Position numbers and translations under genes: made by a program. Positions 25,493 through 34,282 of a DNA stretch of 43,538 bases are shown here, piece by piece. The stretch comes from Fidelibacterota bacterium (GTDB lineage Bacteria; Verrucomicrobiota; Kiritimatiellia; JAIPIQ01). A model generated the notes under the pieces. It did no database searches. It worked only from the letters and a program-made list of their open reading frames with translations, and was not told where the DNA came from. The number at the start of each line of letters is the position of its first letter. Within the stretch, counting starts at the first letter, position 1. The DNA is taken from contig JAIPIQ010000003.1 in the NCBI GenBank assembly GCA_021734645.1, positions 1 through 43,538 of the forward strand, in the 5' to 3' direction.

Positions 25493-28400
25493 TCGTACCT
25501 TCTTTACTCAATATCTAGTTCATATCGCCTCGCTGTTCTTCGTTCTCAAATTAAGCCCGAGGCGAAGCTAACGTTCGTTTCGGCCTACTTTACCGTCAGC
25601 GCCTACGATGCGCTCAAGTCCGAACTCGAATCCGCCGAAAGCCTCCGCTTTCTCTTCGGGGAACCGTCCTTCATTTCGGAAATCGATACCGACAAGCACG
25701 CCAAGAAGAACTTCTGCCTTACTGAGGGCGGGCTTGAACTCGCTCATTCACTGGCTCAGCGTCCCGCCGCCAAGGCGTGTGCGGCATGGATCAATCGGAT
25801 GGTCGAGATTCGCTCGATCCGGCAATCCGGATTTCTCCATGGCAAGGCATACCACATTCAGAACGGCAATGCCTCCAAAGCCATCCTTGGCAGCTCGAAT
25901 TTCACCGTGCCGGGCTTGGGCCTCCGCCATTCCGGCAACAATATCGAACTCAACCTCGTCATCGATTCCGACCGGGATCGCAATGATCTCCTCGACTGGT
26001 TCGAGGAAGTCTGGCGTGACGACGCGCTCACCAAAGACGTGAAAGCTGAGGTGCTGCGCTACTTGGAGCGCCTCTACGCCAATCATTCCCCGGAATTCAT
26101 CTACTACCTCACCCTCTTTCACATCTTCCGAGAGGAACTCGAAGGCGCCGGCGATCTAGACGACACGCTCAAGCGTACAACGCTCCTTGAGTCCAAGGTT
26201 TGGAACATGCTTTTCTCGTTCCAGAAGGACGGCGTTAAAGGCGCGATCAATAAAATCCTTTCCTATAATGGCTGCATCCTGGCCGACAGCGTTGGACTGG
26301 GGAAGACCTTCGAGGCGCTCGCGGTCATCAAGTTTTTTAATCTCCGAGGCGAGAGAGTCCTTGTGCTGTGCCCGAAGAAGCTGCGAGAGAACTGGACCGC
26401 CTACCGTCCACAGAATTCATTGTGCCAACTACCGGAGGACAAACTTGACTATGATGTTTTGTCCCATACGGATCTTTCCCGCACTCAAGGAGAGTCGGAT
26501 GGGCACAATCTGAGCACATTCAACTGGGGCAACTACGGTCTCATCGTCATCGACGAATCCCATAACTTCCGAAACAACGCCGGCGGCAAGGAAAAGGACG
26601 ACGGTTCCCGGCGGCGGAGCCGCTACGAGCGCTTGATGGCGGATGTCATCCAGGCGGGCATGAAAACCAAAGTGCTCCTGCTCTCCGCCACCCCGGTGAA
26701 TAACCAGATCGCCGACATCCGCAACCAGATATCCCTCATCGCAGGCGGGGATGTTGCCCGCTCCGAGAACCCCGCGCACGATGGCGCGTTCCAAGAGAAC
26801 CTCGGCGTGCCCAGCGTGAAGGAAACCGCCCGCCAGGCGCAGAGCAAATTCACCACCTGGACGAGGAGGCCGCCCGCGGAGCGCCAGACCCGCGATCTCA
26901 TCAATCAGCTCGGGAGCGACTTCTTCAAGCTGCTCGATGGCCTCTCCATCGCGCGTTCCCGGGCCCAGATCAAACGCTACTACGCTAAAGAACTCGCCAC
27001 CCTGGGAGGCTTTCCGGACAGATCCAAACCCCATGCCGAATACCCCGAGATTGACGCCGAGGGGAAATTTCTCACCTTCCAGCAACTCGATGCCAAGATC
27101 AGCAGTCTTACCCTGAGCCTCTACCACCCCAGTTCCTACCTCCGCAAGGATTTGCCGCAGCCGGTTCTCGATGAATACGCCCAACGGATTGGCAACTTCA
27201 CGCAGGAGGGTCGGGAGCGGATCCTCATTTCCATGATGAAGGTGAACTTCCTCAAGCGTCTCGAAAGCTCCATTGATTCCTTCCGCCTCACCCTCAGCCG
27301 CACCATCCAGAAGATCGACGACCTCAAGGCCAAAATCGAAAGCTTCCAGAACACCAAGAATCAAAATCCGACCTTCGACTTCGCCAATCTCAGCGACGAG
27401 GACTTCGATGATCTCGATGTCGATCCGGAAGACCTCAAGATCGGCGGCAAGCACAAGATCAGCCTGGAAGACCTCAATCTCCCCGACTGGAAACTGGCCG
27501 TCAGCCAGGATCGCGATCAGTTGCAATACCTGCTGGATCACGCCGCGCCCATTCATCCGGCGCGGGACGCCAAGCTTCTCCGCCTCCGCGCCCTGGTCGA
27601 GCACAAGCTCGATCACCCCTCGACGAATCGGGAGGGCGAGCCTATCCGCAAGATCATCGTCTTCACCGCCTTCGCGGACACAGCTCAGTATCTTTGGAAG
27701 CACCTCGCCGAGCCGGTGCATGCGGCACGCGGCACCCACGCCGCCCTGATTTCAGGCGGCGGGGCCAACCGCACCACGCTGGGTAAAACCGACTTCGAAC
27801 ACATCCTCACCAACTTCTCCCCCCGAGCCAAAGGGCGCGATCGCCGGCCGGAACTCCCGCAGGACGAGGAAATTGATCTCCTGATCGCCACGGACTGCAT
27901 CTCGGAGGGCCAGAACCTTCAGGATTGCGACTACCTGATCAACTACGACATCCACTGGAATCCCGTCCGCATCATCCAGCGCTTCGGCCGCATCGACCGG
28001 ATCGGGTCCCGCAATGCGCGCGTTTCCCGGGTCAACTTCTGGCCCACCAAAGACCTCGACGCCTACCTCAACGTCAAACAACGCGTCGAAGCCCGCATGG
28101 CCTTGGTCGACCTCACCGCCTCGGGCGAGGACAACCTCCTCAACGTCGAGCAGTTCGAAGACCTGATCGCCTCTGATCTCCACTACCGGAATCTGCAGCT
28201 CAAACGCCTGCAGCACGAGATCCTCGACCTCGAGGACCTCAACGAGGACTCCATCTCCCTCGCGGACTTCTCCCTCGCCGACTTCCGGCTCGATCTCCTC
28301 CGCTTCCTCGAAGCCAACCGCGAGGAATTGGAATCTTCTCCGCTCGGGCTGTACGCCGTGATCCCTCCCGATCCCCAGCTCCCCGCCACCCAGCCGGGCA

Positions 28401-28807
28401 TCCTCTTCTGTTTCCGTCAACGCGATGACCGCCGCCCCACCGAGGTGAACCCCCTCGCGCCACACTACCTCGTGTACGTGCTCGACGACGGCAATGTGCG
28501 CCTCACCTTCGCCCAGCCCAAGCAGTCCCTGGAACTCTTCCGGACGCTCGCCGCGGGCCAGTCGTCACCGCTCAACCCCCTCTGCGACCTCTTCGACGAC
28601 CGCACCAGGAACGGCGCCGACATGGCGCACGAGAACAATCTCCTGGAACGCGCCGTCGAATCCATCAAAGCCACCTTCGGCAAACGCGCCGCCGCCGCCT
28701 TGTTCTCCGGCCGTGATGGCAAGCTGCCGTCCGCCCAGGATACCCCGGCCTCCAGCGCCGATCTCGAACTCGTCACCTGGCTCGTCATCATGGGGGGCAA
28801 GGAATGA
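25493..28807 (+). CDS. PLD-domain SNF2-family helicase (defence-type); N-terminus without a canonical start
   Basis: PLD motif FLHGKAYHI...LGSSNFT; Walker A ADSVGLGKTFEA; VIDESHNF; LLSATPVNN; QRFGRIDRIGSRN. First ATG is 25799, but conserved-looking coding (IKPEAKLTFVSAYFTVSAYDALKSELESAESLRFLFGEP...) is in frame upstream to the stop at 25490-25492. Confidence 0.88.
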   Translation, partial: SYLLYSISSSYRLAVLRSQIKPEAKLTFVSAYFTVSAYDALKSELESAESLRFLFGEPSFISEIDTDKHAKKNFCLTEGGLELAHSLAQRPAAKACAAWINRMVEIRSIRQSGFLHGKAYHIQNGNASKAILGSSNFTVPGLGLRHSGNNIELNLVIDSDRDRNDLLDWFEEVWRDDALTKDVKAEVLRYLERLYANHSPEFIYYLTLFHIFREELEGAGDLDDTLKRTTLLESKVWNMLFSFQKDGVKGAINKILSYNGCILADSVGLGKTFEALAVIKFFNLRGERVLVLCPKKLRENWTAYRPQNSLCQLPEDKLDYDVLSHTDLSRTQGESDGHNLSTFNWGNYGLIVIDESHNFRNNAGGKEKDDGSRRRSRYERLMADVIQAGMKTKVLLLSATPVNNQIADIRNQISLIAGGDVARSENPAHDGAFQENLGVPSVKETARQAQSKFTTWTRRPPAERQTRDLINQLGSDFFKLLDGLSIARSRAQIKRYYAKELATLGGFPDRSKPHAEYPEIDAEGKFLTFQQLDAKISSLTLSLYHPSSYLRKDLPQPVLDEYAQRIGNFTQEGRERILISMMKVNFLKRLESSIDSFRLTLSRTIQKIDDLKAKIESFQNTKNQNPTFDFANLSDEDFDDLDVDPEDLKIGGKHKISLEDLNLPDWKLAVSQDRDQLQYLLDHAAPIHPARDAKLLRLRALVEHKLDHPSTNREGEPIRKIIVFTAFADTAQYLWKHLAEPVHAARGTHAALISGGGANRTTLGKTDFEHILTNFSPRAKGRDRRPELPQDEEIDLLIATDCISEGQNLQDCDYLINYDIHWNPVRIIQRFGRIDRIGSRNARVSRVNFWPTKDLDAYLNVKQRVEARMALVDLTASGEDNLLNVEQFEDLIASDLHYRNLQLKRLQHEILDLEDLNEDSISLADFSLADFRLDLLRFLEANREELESSPLGLYAVIPPDPQLPATQPGILFCFRQRDDRRPTEVNPLAPHYLVYVLDDGNVRLTFAQPKQSLELFRTLAAGQSSPLNPLCDLFDDRTRNGADMAHENNLLERAVESIKATFGKRAAAALFSGRDGKLPSAQDTPASSADLELVTWLVIMGGKE

Positions 28808-30372
28808 GTTCACGTATTTTCATCAGCAGCGTCCAAAAGGAGTTCAAGGCAGAGCGAACCGCCCTCGCCCGGTTTATTGCGGATGATCCGCTACTCGGAA
28901 AACAATTTGAAACCTTTGTTTTCGAACGGGATGTACCGGCCACGGACCGACGCCCGGATGCGGTCTACCTCGACGAATTGGCCCGCTGCGACCTCTACCT
29001 GGGTCTGTTTGGCGACGAATATGGCTGGGAAAACAGCGATGGCCTTTCGCCGACCCATTTGGAATTCAACAAGGCTGCCGAACTGCACATTCCCCGGTTG
29101 ATTTACGTCAAAGGACAAGACGATCAAAACAAGCACCCGAAGATGCGCAACCTGATTCACGCTGCTGGGAACGAAATCATACGGCGACGCTTCGAGTCCT
29201 ACGACGATTTACGCGCCAATATCTACGCCAGCCTCGTAAGTCATCTGGAATCCACCGGCGTCCTGCACCAGTTGCCGTGGGATGCAACGCCCGCGAGAGG
29301 GGCAACTCTCGGCGATGTGGATGCAAAGGCCATAGCGAAATTCGTCCGGGGCGCCCGCAAGTGGCGCAACTTCCCACTAGCTGAGGATGCCTCGCCCGCC
29401 GAAGTGTTGGACAAGCTTCACATGCTCAATGGGGATGCCCCCACCCAGGGAGCCATTCTGCTCTTCGGGCGCGAACCCCAGCGATTCCTGCCCGCCTCCC
29501 TCATCAAATGCGCTCATTTCCATGGAACCACTATCGCCAAACCGATACCCGCTCACTTGGATGTCAGGGGTACCGCATTTGAACTGGTCAATGGTGCTGT
29601 TGATTTCGTCCTGTCAAAAATCAACGTCAGCGTGGGCACCCGTAAACAGAGCAGCCAGGCACCGGTCGCGTATGAAATACCGCTTGAAGTCGTCCGCGAA
29701 GGCATTGTAAATGCCGTAGCCCATCGCGACTACACCAGTAATGCCAGTGTGCAGGTCTCCTTGTTTGCCGACCGCCTGGAAATCTGGAATCCCGGCTATC
29801 TCCCGCCCCCTTTGACCCTTGAGCTACTCCGTCACGAGCATCGTTCCTTCCCCCGTAATTTACTCTTTGCCGAAGCACTCTATCTCGTCCGCTACATCGA
29901 GCGCTACGGAACCGGAACGGGCGACATGATCCGCCTATGCCGGGAGGCAGGCCTGCCCGAGCCCGACTTCCGGTTAACCGACGGTTTCGTCACTATTATT
30001 CAACGGCTCGCCCGCATGAAGTCGGCCCCAATCACCCCGCAAGTGGGCCAGAAACCACGCCAGTCGGGGCCAGAGTCGGACGCCTCACCGACCCAGTCAC
30101 CGACCCAGTCACCGACCCAGTCACCGACCCACTCGACCGACCCAGTCAACCGCCTTTTGCTGGCACTGGAAGTCTGTCCCAAGTCGGCGGGAGAGCTGCG
30201 GCAATCGCTTGACCTCAAGCACAGACCGACCTTTCGCGACAACTACATTTATCCCGCTCTGGCAGCCGGTCTCATCGAGCGCACCATTCCAGACAAACCC
30301 ACCAGCCGCCTCCAGAAATATCGCCTGACCGAAAAAGGCCGCGCCTTGCTTTCCAAATCCGAAACCTCATAG
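28804..30372 (+). CDS. DUF4062 + RecG-like GHKL ATPase + winged-helix protein
   Basis: N-terminal SRIFISSVQKEFKAERTALARFI...YLGLFGDEYG (DUF4062); EVVREGIVNAVAHRDY and YGTGTGDMIRLCREAGLPEPDF (AlbA/RecG-type HATPase); C-terminal wHTH. ATGA overlap with the helicase. Confidence 0.85.
   Translation: MSSRIFISSVQKEFKAERTALARFIADDPLLGKQFETFVFERDVPATDRRPDAVYLDELARCDLYLGLFGDEYGWENSDGLSPTHLEFNKAAELHIPRLIYVKGQDDQNKHPKMRNLIHAAGNEIIRRRFESYDDLRANIYASLVSHLESTGVLHQLPWDATPARGATLGDVDAKAIAKFVRGARKWRNFPLAEDASPAEVLDKLHMLNGDAPTQGAILLFGREPQRFLPASLIKCAHFHGTTIAKPIPAHLDVRGTAFELVNGAVDFVLSKINVSVGTRKQSSQAPVAYEIPLEVVREGIVNAVAHRDYTSNASVQVSLFADRLEIWNPGYLPPPLTLELLRHEHRSFPRNLLFAEALYLVRYIERYGTGTGDMIRLCREAGLPEPDFRLTDGFVTIIQRLARMKSAPITPQVGQKPRQSGPESDASPTQSPTQSPTQSPTHSTDPVNRLLLALEVCPKSAGELRQSLDLKHRPTFRDNYIYPALAAGLIERTIPDKPTSRLQKYRLTEKGRALLSKSETS
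30085..30132 (+). repeat. 12-bp tandem repeat (TCACCGACCCAG) x4 inside the DUF4062 gene, encoding (SPTQ)n
   Basis: Three identical 12-mers plus one with a terminal change (...CCAC). Confidence 0.95.
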
Positions 30373-30407
30373 TTCAATCTTCAACCTGTAACCCTCATCC
30401 TTTAAAA

Positions 30408-33400
30408 ATGACCGACCACCGCCCCCGAATCGCAACCAGCCTGAAAGCCTTCGCCGCTGTACCCGTGCGGCAGGCCGCCCTCGACTTGCTCGGCGCCCTT
30501 GGCTACCGCAGCGACAAAACCGTCGCCCTCGAAGGCTCGAAGCCCGGGGCCTTTCTCGACTTCATCGCGGAACACAACCCCGAGGCCGACTTCGACGAGA
30601 AAAAAGGCCCTCTTCCCCGAGTGGAAATCCGCCGACCTCCTCTTCCAGCTCACCGACGAGGAAATCTCCCGCGAAGCCAGTCTCTTCCAGGACACCACCG
30701 TCAAGCCAGGCCTCCTCCGCTCCTACCTCTTCTTCGCCATCGAGCTGACCGGCGGCGACTACGCCCGCGGCAAGCTCACTGCCATTGCCCGCCAGATCAA
30801 CCGTGTCTTCCCCATGCCCGTTATGGTGCTCATCAAGCACCTCACGGACAAAACCCCCGTCCTCTCCATCGCCGTCCTCAACCGCCGCCAAAACAAAGTG
30901 CGGGCCGACAAGGACGTGCTCGGCAAGGTCACCATCATCCGTGATATCTCCCTCGCCAGCCCCCACCGCGGCCACCTCGACATCCTTGACTCCTTTGCCT
31001 TTGAGAATCTCGTCCACCCACAGAAGAAGCCCATCACCGACTTCGACACCCTCCACGCCGCCTGGGAAGAAGTCTTCAACGTCGAACTCCTCAACAAGCG
31101 CTTCTACAAGGAACTCGCCAACTGGTATTTCTGGGCGCTCCCGCAAGTCGAATTCCCAGCCGACCTTGAACCTGACGCCGAAAAGCGCCGCGCCACTGGC
31201 CTCATCCGCCTGCTCACGCGCCTGGTCTTCTGCTGGTTTCTCAAGGAAAAGAACCTCATCCCCGAGGGACTTTTCCACCCCACCGAGCTCGAAAAGATTC
31301 TCAAGGGCTTCGATCCCGAGAGCGAGACCAGCTCAACCTATTACCAGGCGATCCTGCAAAATCTCTTCTTCGCCACGCTCAATCAACGGATGGGCAAAGA
31401 CAGCAGCGGAAAGCCCTATCGGAGATTCGTGTTCGATGAGGGGTATCCGAAGAACAAAAAGAATCACGACCTGAACAACTATTTTCGATACGAGAAACTC
31501 TTCACGGTAAGTCCTGTGAGGCCCTCGCCCTTTTCGAGGATATTCCATTCCTCAACGGCGGTCTATTTGAATGCCTGGACAAACGCGACGAAGACGACCA
31601 AAAGACCTTCTATCTCGACGGCTTCTCCCGCAACCCCAAAAAACGGCCCCAGGTACCCGACCGCCTCTTTTTCGACAGCGGGGAAACCGCCGACCTTTCC
31701 GAGGTCTATGGCGACAAAAAGCGCAAGTCCGAAAAAGTCACCGGCCTTATCACCATCCTGAACCGCTACAAGTTCACCATCGTCGAGAACACCCCCATCG
31801 ATCAGGAAATTGCCCTCGACCCCGAACTGCTCGGCAAAGTCTTTGAAAACCTCCTCGCTTCCTACAACGAGGAAACCAAAACCACCGCCCGCAAGCAGAC
31901 CGGCTCCTTCTACACCCCGCGCCCCATCGTCGAATACATGGTGGACGAGTCCCTCAAGGCCCACCTCTCCCGCAGCCTGGTCGAAAAGGCCGGCATGAAG
32001 GAGGGCGACGCCAAGACGGGGCTCGACATCCTCTTCACCTACACCGAGCGGGCGCACGCCTTCAGCCCCACCGAAGTGTCCACCCTCATCACCGCCATCG
32101 ACGAGGTGAAAATCCTCGACCCCGCCTGTGGCTCCGGCGCTTTCCCCATGGGCGTGCTCCACAAGCTCGTCTATATCCTTGGCAAACTCGATCCCGACAA
32201 TGACCGGTGGAAACAGACCCAGCTTGCCAAACTCGATTCCGCTCCCATGCGCGAGGAACTCGAACGCGCTTTCGCCGACAACAACGACGACTACGGCCGC
32301 AAGCTCTACCTCATCGAAAACTGCCTCTACGGCGTGGACATCCAACCCATCGCCATCCAAATCTCCAAACTTCGCTTTTTCATCTCCCTTGTTTGCGACC
32401 AGAAGTCCAATCGCGACAAAGCCAAAAACCACGGCATCCGCCCGCTGCCCAATCTCGAAACCAAATTCGTCGCCGCCGATACCCTCATCGGCCTGCCCAT
32501 CCCCGAGCCAGACCTTTTTATAAAGGCGTTGATCGAGCCCATCGAGAAAGAAATTGAACAAGCCTATCACAGCCATTTCGCTATCCAGCGTCGCGATCAA
32601 AAGCTGGCCCTGCAAAAGAAAATCAAAACGCTCCGCCTGAAACTTGCCGACGCCATCGTCAATGGCTTGGGGGCAAGCAAGAATGCTGAAGTAACGAAGA
32701 AGGCGCATCATGTCGCCGCATGGGACCCCTTCGACCCACAATCCTCCGCCGACTTCTTCGATCCGCATTGGATGTTCGGACGGGCTTTGAAGGACGGGTT
32801 TGATGTGGTGATTGGGAACCCGCCGTATGTCCGCGCCGATGAACAGAGCGACTGGAACCAGCACCAACGCCAGCAAATTCTTGCCAGCGGCGATTATGAA
32901 ACCCTTTGGGAGAAGTGGGACCTCTTTGTTCCTTTCATTGAACGCTCATACAAACTCCTCAAGCGTGGCGGGGTCAGCGCCCTGATCGTCTCCGACGCCT
33001 TTTGCCACGCCAAATACGCCCAGAAGTGCCAGAACTGGCTGCTGAAGAACAGCCTCATCCTGCGTCTCGATTTTTGCGGCGACCTTAGAATCTTCGATGC
33101 CGCTGTCCATAACGTCATCCCTTTCATTCAACGGGCCGACGGCACCGAGTGGAAACCCCAACGCCGCGTTCACAAGGAAGTCTTTGGCAATGTCACCTTA
33201 CTGCCAACCGATATGCAGGCAAACTTAACCTACAGGGCGTTTTTCCCAGAGGAGGGCAAGGTAGCTACCTTTTCAGGCGCTACAATATCATTGGACCAGA
33301 TTTGCTATGTATCATACGGATTGCGCCCAAACAGTGATGAAAAGGGAGCCAAAGGTGAATTCTCCACAGCAGCTTTAGTTTCTGAGGAAAAGGATAAAAT

Positions 33401-34067
33401 ACACTGCAAACCCTATGTTGAAGGAAAGCATCTCGGACCTTGGCTGCCACAAACACATTTATGGATTGAATGGGGAACGGATCGGGCTCCTTCTCGTTTT
33501 TGCCGTCCGACATTTGCCGAACTGTATGAGGGCCCAGAAAAAATTCTTGCCCAACGAAGCCCTGGCCCTGATCCTGTAATCTCTTATGACATGCTGCAAC
33601 TCATTTATACACCAGCATGCGTAGGTTTTGTTCCCTGGCACCATCTCTCCGGCGTCCGCAACAACTCGCTCAAGAAAGCCGCGCGTTACGCTGATGAAAA
33701 ACCGCCGCGCCCCGACCTGCCACGCCGCGAGGACCTGGAAAAGACCAGCCGTCGGTTCTCCGTCAAATATTTGCTTGGGGTAATGAATTCCTCGACAGCC
33801 TGCGACTTCCTGCGCGCCAACCGCCGCAGCAACATCCATCTCTACCCCGACGACTGGAAGAAGCTTTCGATTCCGGACGTGCCGTCTGAAGAGCAGCAGC
33901 CCATCATTGATCTGGTCGACCGCATTCTCGCGGCCAAGACCGCCGACCCAGCCGCCGATATTGCCGCTTTCGAAGCCGAGATTGACCGCCTTGTCTCCTC
34001 CCTGTACGGCATCACGGCCACCGACATCGAGATTGCGGAGAGCAAGAAAGGGGCACAACCAACGTGA
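30408..34067 (+). pseudogene. Eco57I/DrmMI-like N6-adenine DNA methyltransferase, interrupted by two apparent single-nt frameshifts
   Basis: Motif I KILDPACGSGAFPMGVLHKL and motif IV VVIGNPPYVRADEQ. Coding runs in frame 0 (30408 to about 30603), frame +1 (about 30604-31502), then frame 0 again (about 31503-34067). Confidence 0.85.
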
Positions 34068-34282
34068 GACAAAAAAGGCAGGAAGTTGCCGTCGCACCTG
34101 ATCTCCAAGACCGGATATTCACCGTCCGGGGGGAGAAAGTGATTCTGGATAGTGACCTGGCGGAAATCTACGGGGTGGAAACCAAGATCCTCAACATGGC
34201 GGTAGCCAGGAATCTCAAGCGGTTTCCCCCAGATCATGCATTTCGCCTTACGCAGCAAGAACGTACAAACTTGAGGTTCTAA
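34064..34282 (+). pseudogene. ORF6N-domain DNA-binding protein, prematurely terminated
   Basis: DRIFTVRGEKVILDSDLAEIYGVETKILNMAVARNLKRFPPDHAFRLTQQE (ORF6N). After the TAA the same frame continues NGTSSSAWGGRRYPPWVFTE, the expected family continuation, then stops again. Confidence 0.82.

What the first reader, a model, noticed from the sequence alone, without database searches (positions are those of the whole stretch)
25493..34282. Compact four-gene defence-like operon: PLD-SNF2 helicase, DUF4062-GHKL-wHTH protein, Eco57I/DrmMI-like methylase, ORF6N protein
Helicase and DUF4062 gene overlap by ATGA, the methylase starts 35 bp later, and the ORF6N gene overlaps the methylase stop (GTGA), so the four look like one transcription unit. 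A nuclease-superfamily (PLD) helicase plus a large N6-adenine methylase recalls the drmD/drmMI pair of class 1 DISARM, but no drmA, drmB or drmC is present; an unusual DUF4062 protein with a RecG-like GHKL module sits between the effector and the modification enzyme. Inference: a minimal methylation-guided defence system with a built-in sensor or switch.
Basis: partly seen in the sequence, partly recalled or inferred. Interest (0 to 1): 0.75.

Follow-up and report, generated by a model that had tools for sequence, protein, structure and literature searches.

The report
Decayed helicase–methylase restriction operon with cargo
This is a damaged copy of a widespread bacterial anti-phage operon, made of a nuclease-helicase and a DNA-marking enzyme, with a swappable slot between them that here holds a probable cell-suicide enzyme, and its relatives suggest a shared way of plugging this helicase into quite different restriction systems.

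Summary
Only the DUF4062 gene is intact: the helicase lacks a start codon and its conserved N-terminus, the methylase changes frame twice, and the ORF6N gene is truncated.

Relatives show the unit is not a four-gene system. The core is an HKD(PLD)-SNF2 helicase plus a type IIG-like Eco57I methylase; 53 of 62 methylase loci with enough upstream sequence carry the helicase upstream. Genes between them are exchangeable cargo (DUF1016, Fic, AlbA/GHKL, Abi_2, ORF6N, DUF4062).

DUF4062 entered this slot at least three times and also sits in type I, type III, MmeI and BREX loci; a 2026 preprint shows the domain to be a TIR-like NADase.

Two new points. (1) The methylase N-terminus is DUF4391-like, and a separate DUF4391 protein follows the sister helicases of type III loci, so DUF4391 probably couples helicase to modifier. 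(2) HKD residues are kept in 74/74 methylase-partnered helicases and lost in all 17 type III-partnered ones, so the HKD domain is probably the restriction nuclease.

It is not DISARM. It is a new variant of restriction-modification, predicted, untested.

The parts
25493..28807 (+). HKD(PLD)-SNF2 helicase-nuclease gene, 1104 codons open, no start codon and conserved N-terminus missing (5' end damaged)
   Evidence: PADLOC C3a139 'HKD+Snf2' 406.5 bits over 33-1071
25838..25948 (+). HKD nuclease site: H116, K118, G133-S134-S135-N136, E152; helicase motif I GLGKT starts at residue 268, DESHN at 354
   Evidence: all five residues kept in 74/74 helicases partnered with IIG-like methylases; weak phmmer match to PDB 2c1l, E 8e-4, residues 85-170
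28804..30372 (+). Slot (cargo) gene: DUF4062 (TIR-like, E87 conserved) + GHKL HATPase_c_4 + Fic-like_C winged helix, 522 aa, intact
   Evidence: PMC13174449 for the activity of DUF4062
30085..30148 (+). 12-bp tandem repeat, 5.2 copies, coding for the SPTQ-repeat linker before the winged helix
30408..34067 (+). Type IIG-like Eco57I N6-adenine methylase, broken by two frame changes (near 30600 and near 31500-31518)
   Evidence: homologue L043 best PADLOC hit REase_MTase_IIG 323 bits
30619..30946 (+). Approximate extent of the DUF4391-like N-terminal domain of the methylase (proposed helicase-coupling module)
   Evidence: Pfam DUF4391 matches 35 of 38 homologous N-termini, best 3.9e-7; hhalign; models
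34064..34282 (+). ORF6N remnant, truncated (72 codons; profile positions 2-56 of 86)
   Evidence: PADLOC PDC-S05 81 bits

Best explanation
The locus is a decayed member of a widespread restriction-modification-like family whose core is two genes. The large methylase (DUF4391-like N-terminus, helical connector, Eco57I-type N6-adenine methylase, TaqI_C-type specificity domain) would read a DNA site and methylate it on self DNA. The helicase couples a BfiI-like HKD nuclease domain to a SNF2 motor. It would be recruited to unmethylated sites through the DUF4391-like domain, translocate, and cut with the HKD site, acting as restriction subunit in trans. The gene between them is exchangeable, translationally coupled cargo. 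Here it is a TIR-like (DUF4062) NADase joined to a GHKL ATPase and a winged helix, most likely an abortive-infection fail-safe used when restriction fails or is inhibited. ORF6N is a second cargo gene.

Shown by computation: domains, operon structure, recurrence of the pair, cargo exchange, the split in HKD conservation by partner type, DUF4391 similarity, damage in this copy. Inferred: nuclease activity, recruitment through DUF4391, methylation guidance, role of the NADase as fail-safe.
For: Pair: a search with the methylase N-terminus alone gave 80 loci in many phyla. Of 62 with at least 3.6 kb upstream, 53 have the helicase upstream on the same strand and a 54th (L179) has it downstream; 32 of the 62 measurable helicase-methylase spacings are below 150 bp. 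HKD: H116, K118, S134, N136 and E152 are kept in 74/74 helicases of this kind and lost in all 12 genomic and 5 plasmid type III-partnered helicases, whose motif I is intact. The partner switch is one change on the helicase tree with full SH-aLRT support. DUF4391: every checked type III-partnered helicase (11 genomic, 5 plasmid-borne) is followed by a DUF4391 protein. Pfam DUF4391 matches 35 of 38 methylase N-termini, no other family more than 2. hhalign P is 2.7e-4 to 8.9e-4, against 0.03 or more for six decoys. The two AlphaFold models (pLDDT 89.6 and 90.5) have the same order of ten elements. Cargo: slot occupants differ between close helicases; the DUF4062 tree needs 4 changes of context, at least 3 forced. 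DUF4062 as NADase: PMC13174449; E87 is conserved.
Against: No experiment on this core pair was found. Poribacterial and a few other loci carry the methylase without this helicase upstream (9 of 62), so the methylase may work alone or with another effector. DUF4391 similarity is mostly below Pfam's cut-off (20-21 against 29.9 bits), hhalign probabilities are only 11-42%, and my own narrower DUF4391 HMM did not detect the methylase N-termini. The fold of the domain was not recognised in the PDB. Loss of HKD residues in the type III clade may be one old event rather than repeated relaxation. Residual nuclease activity in the methylase itself cannot be excluded.
Confidence: 0.62

Rival explanations
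1. A reduced or divergent DISARM/ARMADA-type system: DrmD-like helicase and DrmMI/PglX-like methylase whose YprA (drmA) and drmB partners are lost or elsewhere in the genome.
For: Helicase and methylase have partial similarity to DrmD (132-162 bits) and DrmMI (72 bits). ARMADA and class 1 DISARM pair a Snf2 (BrxHII/RapA-like) helicase with a PglX-like methylase (PMC12458937).
Against: DrmD score is far below its cut-off (162 against 610), the best model is HKD+Snf2 C3a139 over the full length (406 bits), and the best methylase models are type IIG. No MZB/DrmB domain in the genome. No recurrent YprA-like neighbour surfaced when genes around 80 loci were clustered, though these were not scanned with a YprA model.
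Confidence: 0.06
2. A BREX-related (type-2 BR) RM-like system, which also uses an HKD-Swi2/Snf2 helicase plus N6-methylase, lacking DUF499 and DUF3780 here.
For: Same effector architecture, HKD + Swi2/Snf2, predicted to restrict while an N6-MTase protects (PMC12839542). The own genome has a DUF499 protein on another contig.
Against: No DUF499 gene in the window, and no DUF499- or DUF3780-like recurrent neighbour surfaced by clustering around 80 loci. DUF3780 was not searched by model, and the DUF499 contig was not examined further.
Confidence: 0.08
3. A stand-alone type IIG restriction-modification enzyme (nuclease in the methylase polypeptide); the helicase and other genes are unrelated passengers of a defence island.
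For: PADLOC classes the methylase as type IIG, and some loci lack the helicase.
Against: The helicase is adjacent in 53 of 62 loci across many phyla, often overlapping by 4 bp. The N-terminus shows DUF4391 rather than a nuclease family, no ExK-like invariant triad appears among conserved columns, and the HKD site is invariant only in these helicases.
Confidence: 0.15
4. The DUF4062 gene, not the RM pair, is the principal defence gene (a Swarozyc-type NADase), and the RM pair merely hosts it.
For: DUF4062 is the only intact gene here, occurs in many other contexts, and other DUF4062 proteins defend alone (PMC13174449).
Against: Its C-terminal GHKL + winged-helix part differs from the tested Swarozyc set as far as the text tells. 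Recurrent embedding inside RM and BREX operons, here with a 4-bp overlap to the helicase, suggests dependence on the host operon.
Confidence: 0.2

Closest known systems
Type III RM loci with an HKD-derived SNF2 helicase and DUF4391 (e.g. E. coli plasmid pLAO18, L034)
   Same: Homologous full-length helicase (about 40% identity); DUF4391 module next to it; modification enzyme downstream; cargo genes between the subunits
   Different: Modifier is a type III Mod with a Res subunit; DUF4391 is a separate protein; HKD residues are lost
Type-2 BREX-related (BR) systems (PMC12839542)
   Same: HKD-nuclease fused N-terminally to a Swi2/Snf2 helicase, N6-adenine methylase, RM-like logic
   Different: BR systems are defined by DUF499 and DUF3780; not found as recurrent neighbours here
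Class 1 DISARM / ARMADA
   Same: Snf2 helicase next to a large Eco57I/PglX-like methylase
   Different: No YprA (drmA), drmB or drmC; helicase is HKD-SNF2 with a score far below the DrmD cut-off
Type IIG RM enzymes (PADLOC REase_MTase_IIG)
   Same: Methylase core and specificity region
   Different: N-terminus is DUF4391-like with no recognisable nuclease motif; nuclease proposed in trans on the helicase
Swarozyc (DUF4062 NADase; PMC13174449)
   Same: DUF4062 TIR-like domain with a conserved glutamate (E87)
   Different: Fused to GHKL ATPase and Fic-like_C winged helix, and embedded in an RM operon

Membership tests
DISARM class 1 | DrmD helicase at the NCBIfam equivalog cut-off | tested here: not met
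   161.7 against 610 bits
DISARM class 1 | drmB (MZB/DUF1998) present | tested here: not met
   No PF09369 match in the own genome, 69% complete; not among domain hits of the window genes
BREX-related type 2 | DUF499 ATPase in the locus | tested here: not met
   The only DUF499 match in the genome lies on another contig, C115
BREX-related type 2 | DUF3780 in the locus | not tested
   No model search was run
BREX-related type 2 | HKD + Swi2/Snf2 helicase | tested here: met
Type III RM | Mod and Res subunits | tested here: not met
   Methylase is Eco57I/IIG type; no Res gene in the operon
Type IIG RM | IIG-type methylase core | tested here: met
   185 bits for the window C-terminal part and 323 bits for homologue L043 to PDLC03601
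Type IIG RM | Nuclease domain in the same polypeptide | tested here: inconclusive
   N-terminus matches DUF4391; weak VIA-align matches at Z about 4 to restriction-endonuclease-like chains such as 7lvv_D
HKD+Snf2 family (PADLOC C3a139) | Full-length similarity of the helicase | tested here: met
   406.5 bits, residues 33-1071
Swarozyc / DUF4062 TIR-like NADases | DUF4062 domain over the Pfam cut-off with conserved catalytic-type Glu | tested here: met
   71.3 against 24.7 bits; E87 conserved in at least 90% of rows; its identity with KpSwz E97 is inferred, not aligned here
Swarozyc / DUF4062 TIR-like NADases | NAD+ hydrolysis on phage infection | not testable with these tools
   Needs experiment

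The most novel reading that the evidence does not exclude
DUF4391 is a dedicated docking module by which one SNF2 helicase family plugs into different DNA-modification enzymes: as a separate protein in type III RM, where the helicase's HKD nuclease has died because Res cuts, and fused to the methylase in a two-gene type IIG-like system, where the HKD domain is the restriction nuclease working in trans. The gene slot between helicase and methylase is a cargo bay for fail-safe effectors, including TIR-like NADases.
Probability: 0.4. Interest if true: 0.72.

Novelty: new variant of a known kind. Interest (0 to 1): 0.56.

Why it matters
If right, a common but undescribed restriction architecture would be defined: modifier with built-in adaptor, helicase-nuclease in trans, exchangeable fail-safe cargo. 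DUF4391 would gain a role; it occurs in one paper of the library searched. The clean split of HKD conservation by partner type makes a point-mutation test direct. It would also show how abortive-infection modules such as DUF4062 NADases are shared between RM, BREX and related operons.

Tried and rejected
DISARM membership (DrmD, DrmB) rejected.

Finding the fold of the methylase N-terminus in the PDB: no Foldseek hit below E 0.001. VIA-align top Z was 5.2, with Z about 4 for 7lvv_D (DrdV), 2zyz (splicing endonuclease) and a SPARDA chain, too weak to use. For the DUF4391 model nearly all matches were to the C-terminal helical hairpin, and the viral library gave nothing. The idea that the domain is an inactive restriction-endonuclease fold therefore stays a guess.

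My own HMM of 24 DUF4391 sequences did not hit the methylase N-termini, unlike Pfam's broader model.

A viral-contig search with one DUF4391 protein found nothing; with the alignment it gave 17 loci.

No paper for C3a139. Paper searches for the SNF2 + PLD + methylase combination returned only the BREX-related, YprA/ARMADA and CoCoNuT works as relevant.

Close relatives to compare the damage with: the order holds only this genome.
Full report
Observation. Pfam identifies PLDc_2, SNF2 and Helicase_C in the first protein; DUF4062, HATPase_c_4 and Fic-like_C in the second; Eco57I and N6_Mtase in the third; ORF6N in the fourth. The copy is damaged. The helicase frame opens at 25493 without a start codon; homologues of the methylase-partnered kind carry a conserved stretch such as I(R/K/W)DNxxRGxVGDFL that no frame of the window encodes. 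The methylase changes frame near 30600 and near 31510, while about a dozen homologues are single frames of 1,252-1,610 aa. ORF6N is cut at profile position 56 of 86. The assembly is a MAG of 2.6 Mb in 224 contigs, 69% complete, so error at the A-run is possible, but three damaged genes in one operon suggest decay.

Relatives of the helicase. In 387 genomes of the phylum, 51 have the helicase at E below 1e-80, in two groups. Those with about 50% identity or more stand next to a type IIG-like methylase (L037-L057). Those near 40% stand next to DUF4391 and type III Mod and Res genes (L058-L071), as do plasmid copies in Raoultella, E. coli, Methanomethylovorans, Desulforapulum (Mod only) and Mycolicibacterium. 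On a 93-row tree the partner type changes once, fully supported.

The pair from the other side. Of 62 with at least 3.6 kb upstream, 53 have the helicase upstream on the same strand; L179 has it downstream. Spacing was measurable in 62 loci: 32 below 150 bp, 23 with 600 bp or more, i.e. room for a gene. A third recurrent gene, an SMC/RecF-like ATPase of about 555 aa, overlaps the methylase stop in many loci; the window lacks it.

The slot. In loci with a gap the occupants are DUF1016, Fic, AlbA/GHKL, Abi_2, ORF6N or DUF4062 proteins (names for families other than DUF4062, GHKL and ORF6N are my reading of the sequences, not scanned). Occupants change between near-identical hosts: helicases L039 and L181 are 0.05 changes per site apart, yet one has no slot gene and the other an AlbA/GHKL gene. 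One genome (G375) has two copies, one with DUF1016 and one with DUF4062.

DUF4062. Relatives of the window's protein occur in 32 of 387 genomes. Besides L044, L146 and the cousin L197 (HKD-SNF2 - DUF4062 - IIG), they sit beside HsdM/HsdS/HsdR (L192), other HsdR genes (L184, L199), an MmeI enzyme (L183), type III Mod/Res (L200), and inside a BREX operon between BrxC and PglX (L188). On the DUF4062 tree the four helicase-associated cases need four changes, at least three forced by supported branches: repeated recruitment. The motif SPTxxEF with E87 is conserved. A May 2026 preprint, PMC13174449, shows that DUF4062 is a TIR-like NADase whose bacterial members (Swarozyc) cause abortive infection, needing a catalytic Glu.

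DUF4391. In the type III group a DUF4391 protein follows every checked helicase, 11 genomic and 5 plasmid-borne. The N-terminus of the IIG-like methylases matches Pfam DUF4391 in 35 of 38 members, best E 3.9e-7, with no other family in more than two. hhalign finds the same stretch at P 2.7e-4 to 8.9e-4, six decoy families at 0.03 or worse. AlphaFold models of the two (pLDDT 89.6, 90.5) share the order H-H-E-h-E-H-E-E-E-H with similar lengths. Against this, single scores lie mostly under Pfam's cut-off, a narrower HMM failed, and PDB searches recognised no fold. I take the similarity as probable, not proven.

HKD site. H116, K118, S134, N136 and E152 (window numbering) are present in all 74 helicases partnered with the IIG-like methylase. 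In the 12 genomic type III-partnered helicases H, N and E are absent in all and K and S present in one each; the five plasmid ones lack the HxK-GSxN motif. Motif I is intact in all genomic rows. The weak PDB match 2c1l is BfiI, from my own knowledge a metal-independent HKD restriction nuclease with one such site per subunit. The simplest reading is that the HKD domain cuts where no Res subunit does.

Mechanism. From these facts I infer a two-component restriction system in which the methylase reads and marks DNA and recruits, through its DUF4391-like domain, a SNF2 translocase with an HKD nuclease. The DUF4062-GHKL-wHTH cargo gene would trigger NAD+ loss if restriction fails. Recruitment, nuclease activity and the fail-safe role are untested.

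Comparison. Not DISARM. Like the type-2 BREX-related systems of PMC12839542 in its HKD-Snf2 effector, but without DUF499 in the locus. Not type III. The methylase is of type IIG, and the helicase is a full-length PADLOC C3a139 match. I found no description of the pair, of its exchangeable slot, or of DUF4391 as adaptor in the held library; papers outside it may exist.

Verdict. An ordinary defence-island cargo gene inside a decayed copy of a widespread, apparently undescribed RM variant. The window itself is a poor specimen; the family is the interesting part.

Noticed in passing
window 30085-30148: 12-bp tandem repeat (5.2 copies) codes for the SPTQ linker of the DUF4062 protein; relatives have other short-repeat linkers at the same place (L044 TPPV, L054 VTPQ/VTGQ, L146 GQVA), possibly a recombination-tuned linker.
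   Followed up: partly
G000:C115:13786-15234 (L202): A DUF499 protein lies elsewhere in the same genome (103 bits), perhaps a BREX-related system.
   Followed up: no
L188 8697-10325: A DUF4062-GHKL gene sits inside a complete-looking BREX operon between BrxC and PglX, with a 323-aa gene of no Pfam family beside it.
   Followed up: partly
L111, L112, L113, L114, L116, L119, L121, L137, L146, L154, L157: An SMC/RecF-like ATPase of about 555 aa overlaps the methylase stop codon by 4 bp in most of these loci and may be a third core component in that branch.
   Followed up: partly
L126, L130, L131, L160, L163, L172: Poribacterial loci often have the methylase without this helicase upstream (L131 and L172 have only short upstream sequence), followed by proteins related to each other that look like stand-alone TaqI_C-type specificity domains.
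   Followed up: no
L221 3077-13432 (Parabacteroides distasonis plasmid): A distant cousin operon: HTH regulator, RNA-binding-domain protein, SNF2 helicase with an HxK-GSxN motif, N6 methylase with a different N-terminus, hypothetical protein, TIR-domain protein; from an isolate.
   Followed up: partly
L203 (Sphingobium sp. plasmid pNIN3): The type III-associated helicase and methylase genes are each interrupted by insertion sequences, another decaying copy.
   Followed up: no
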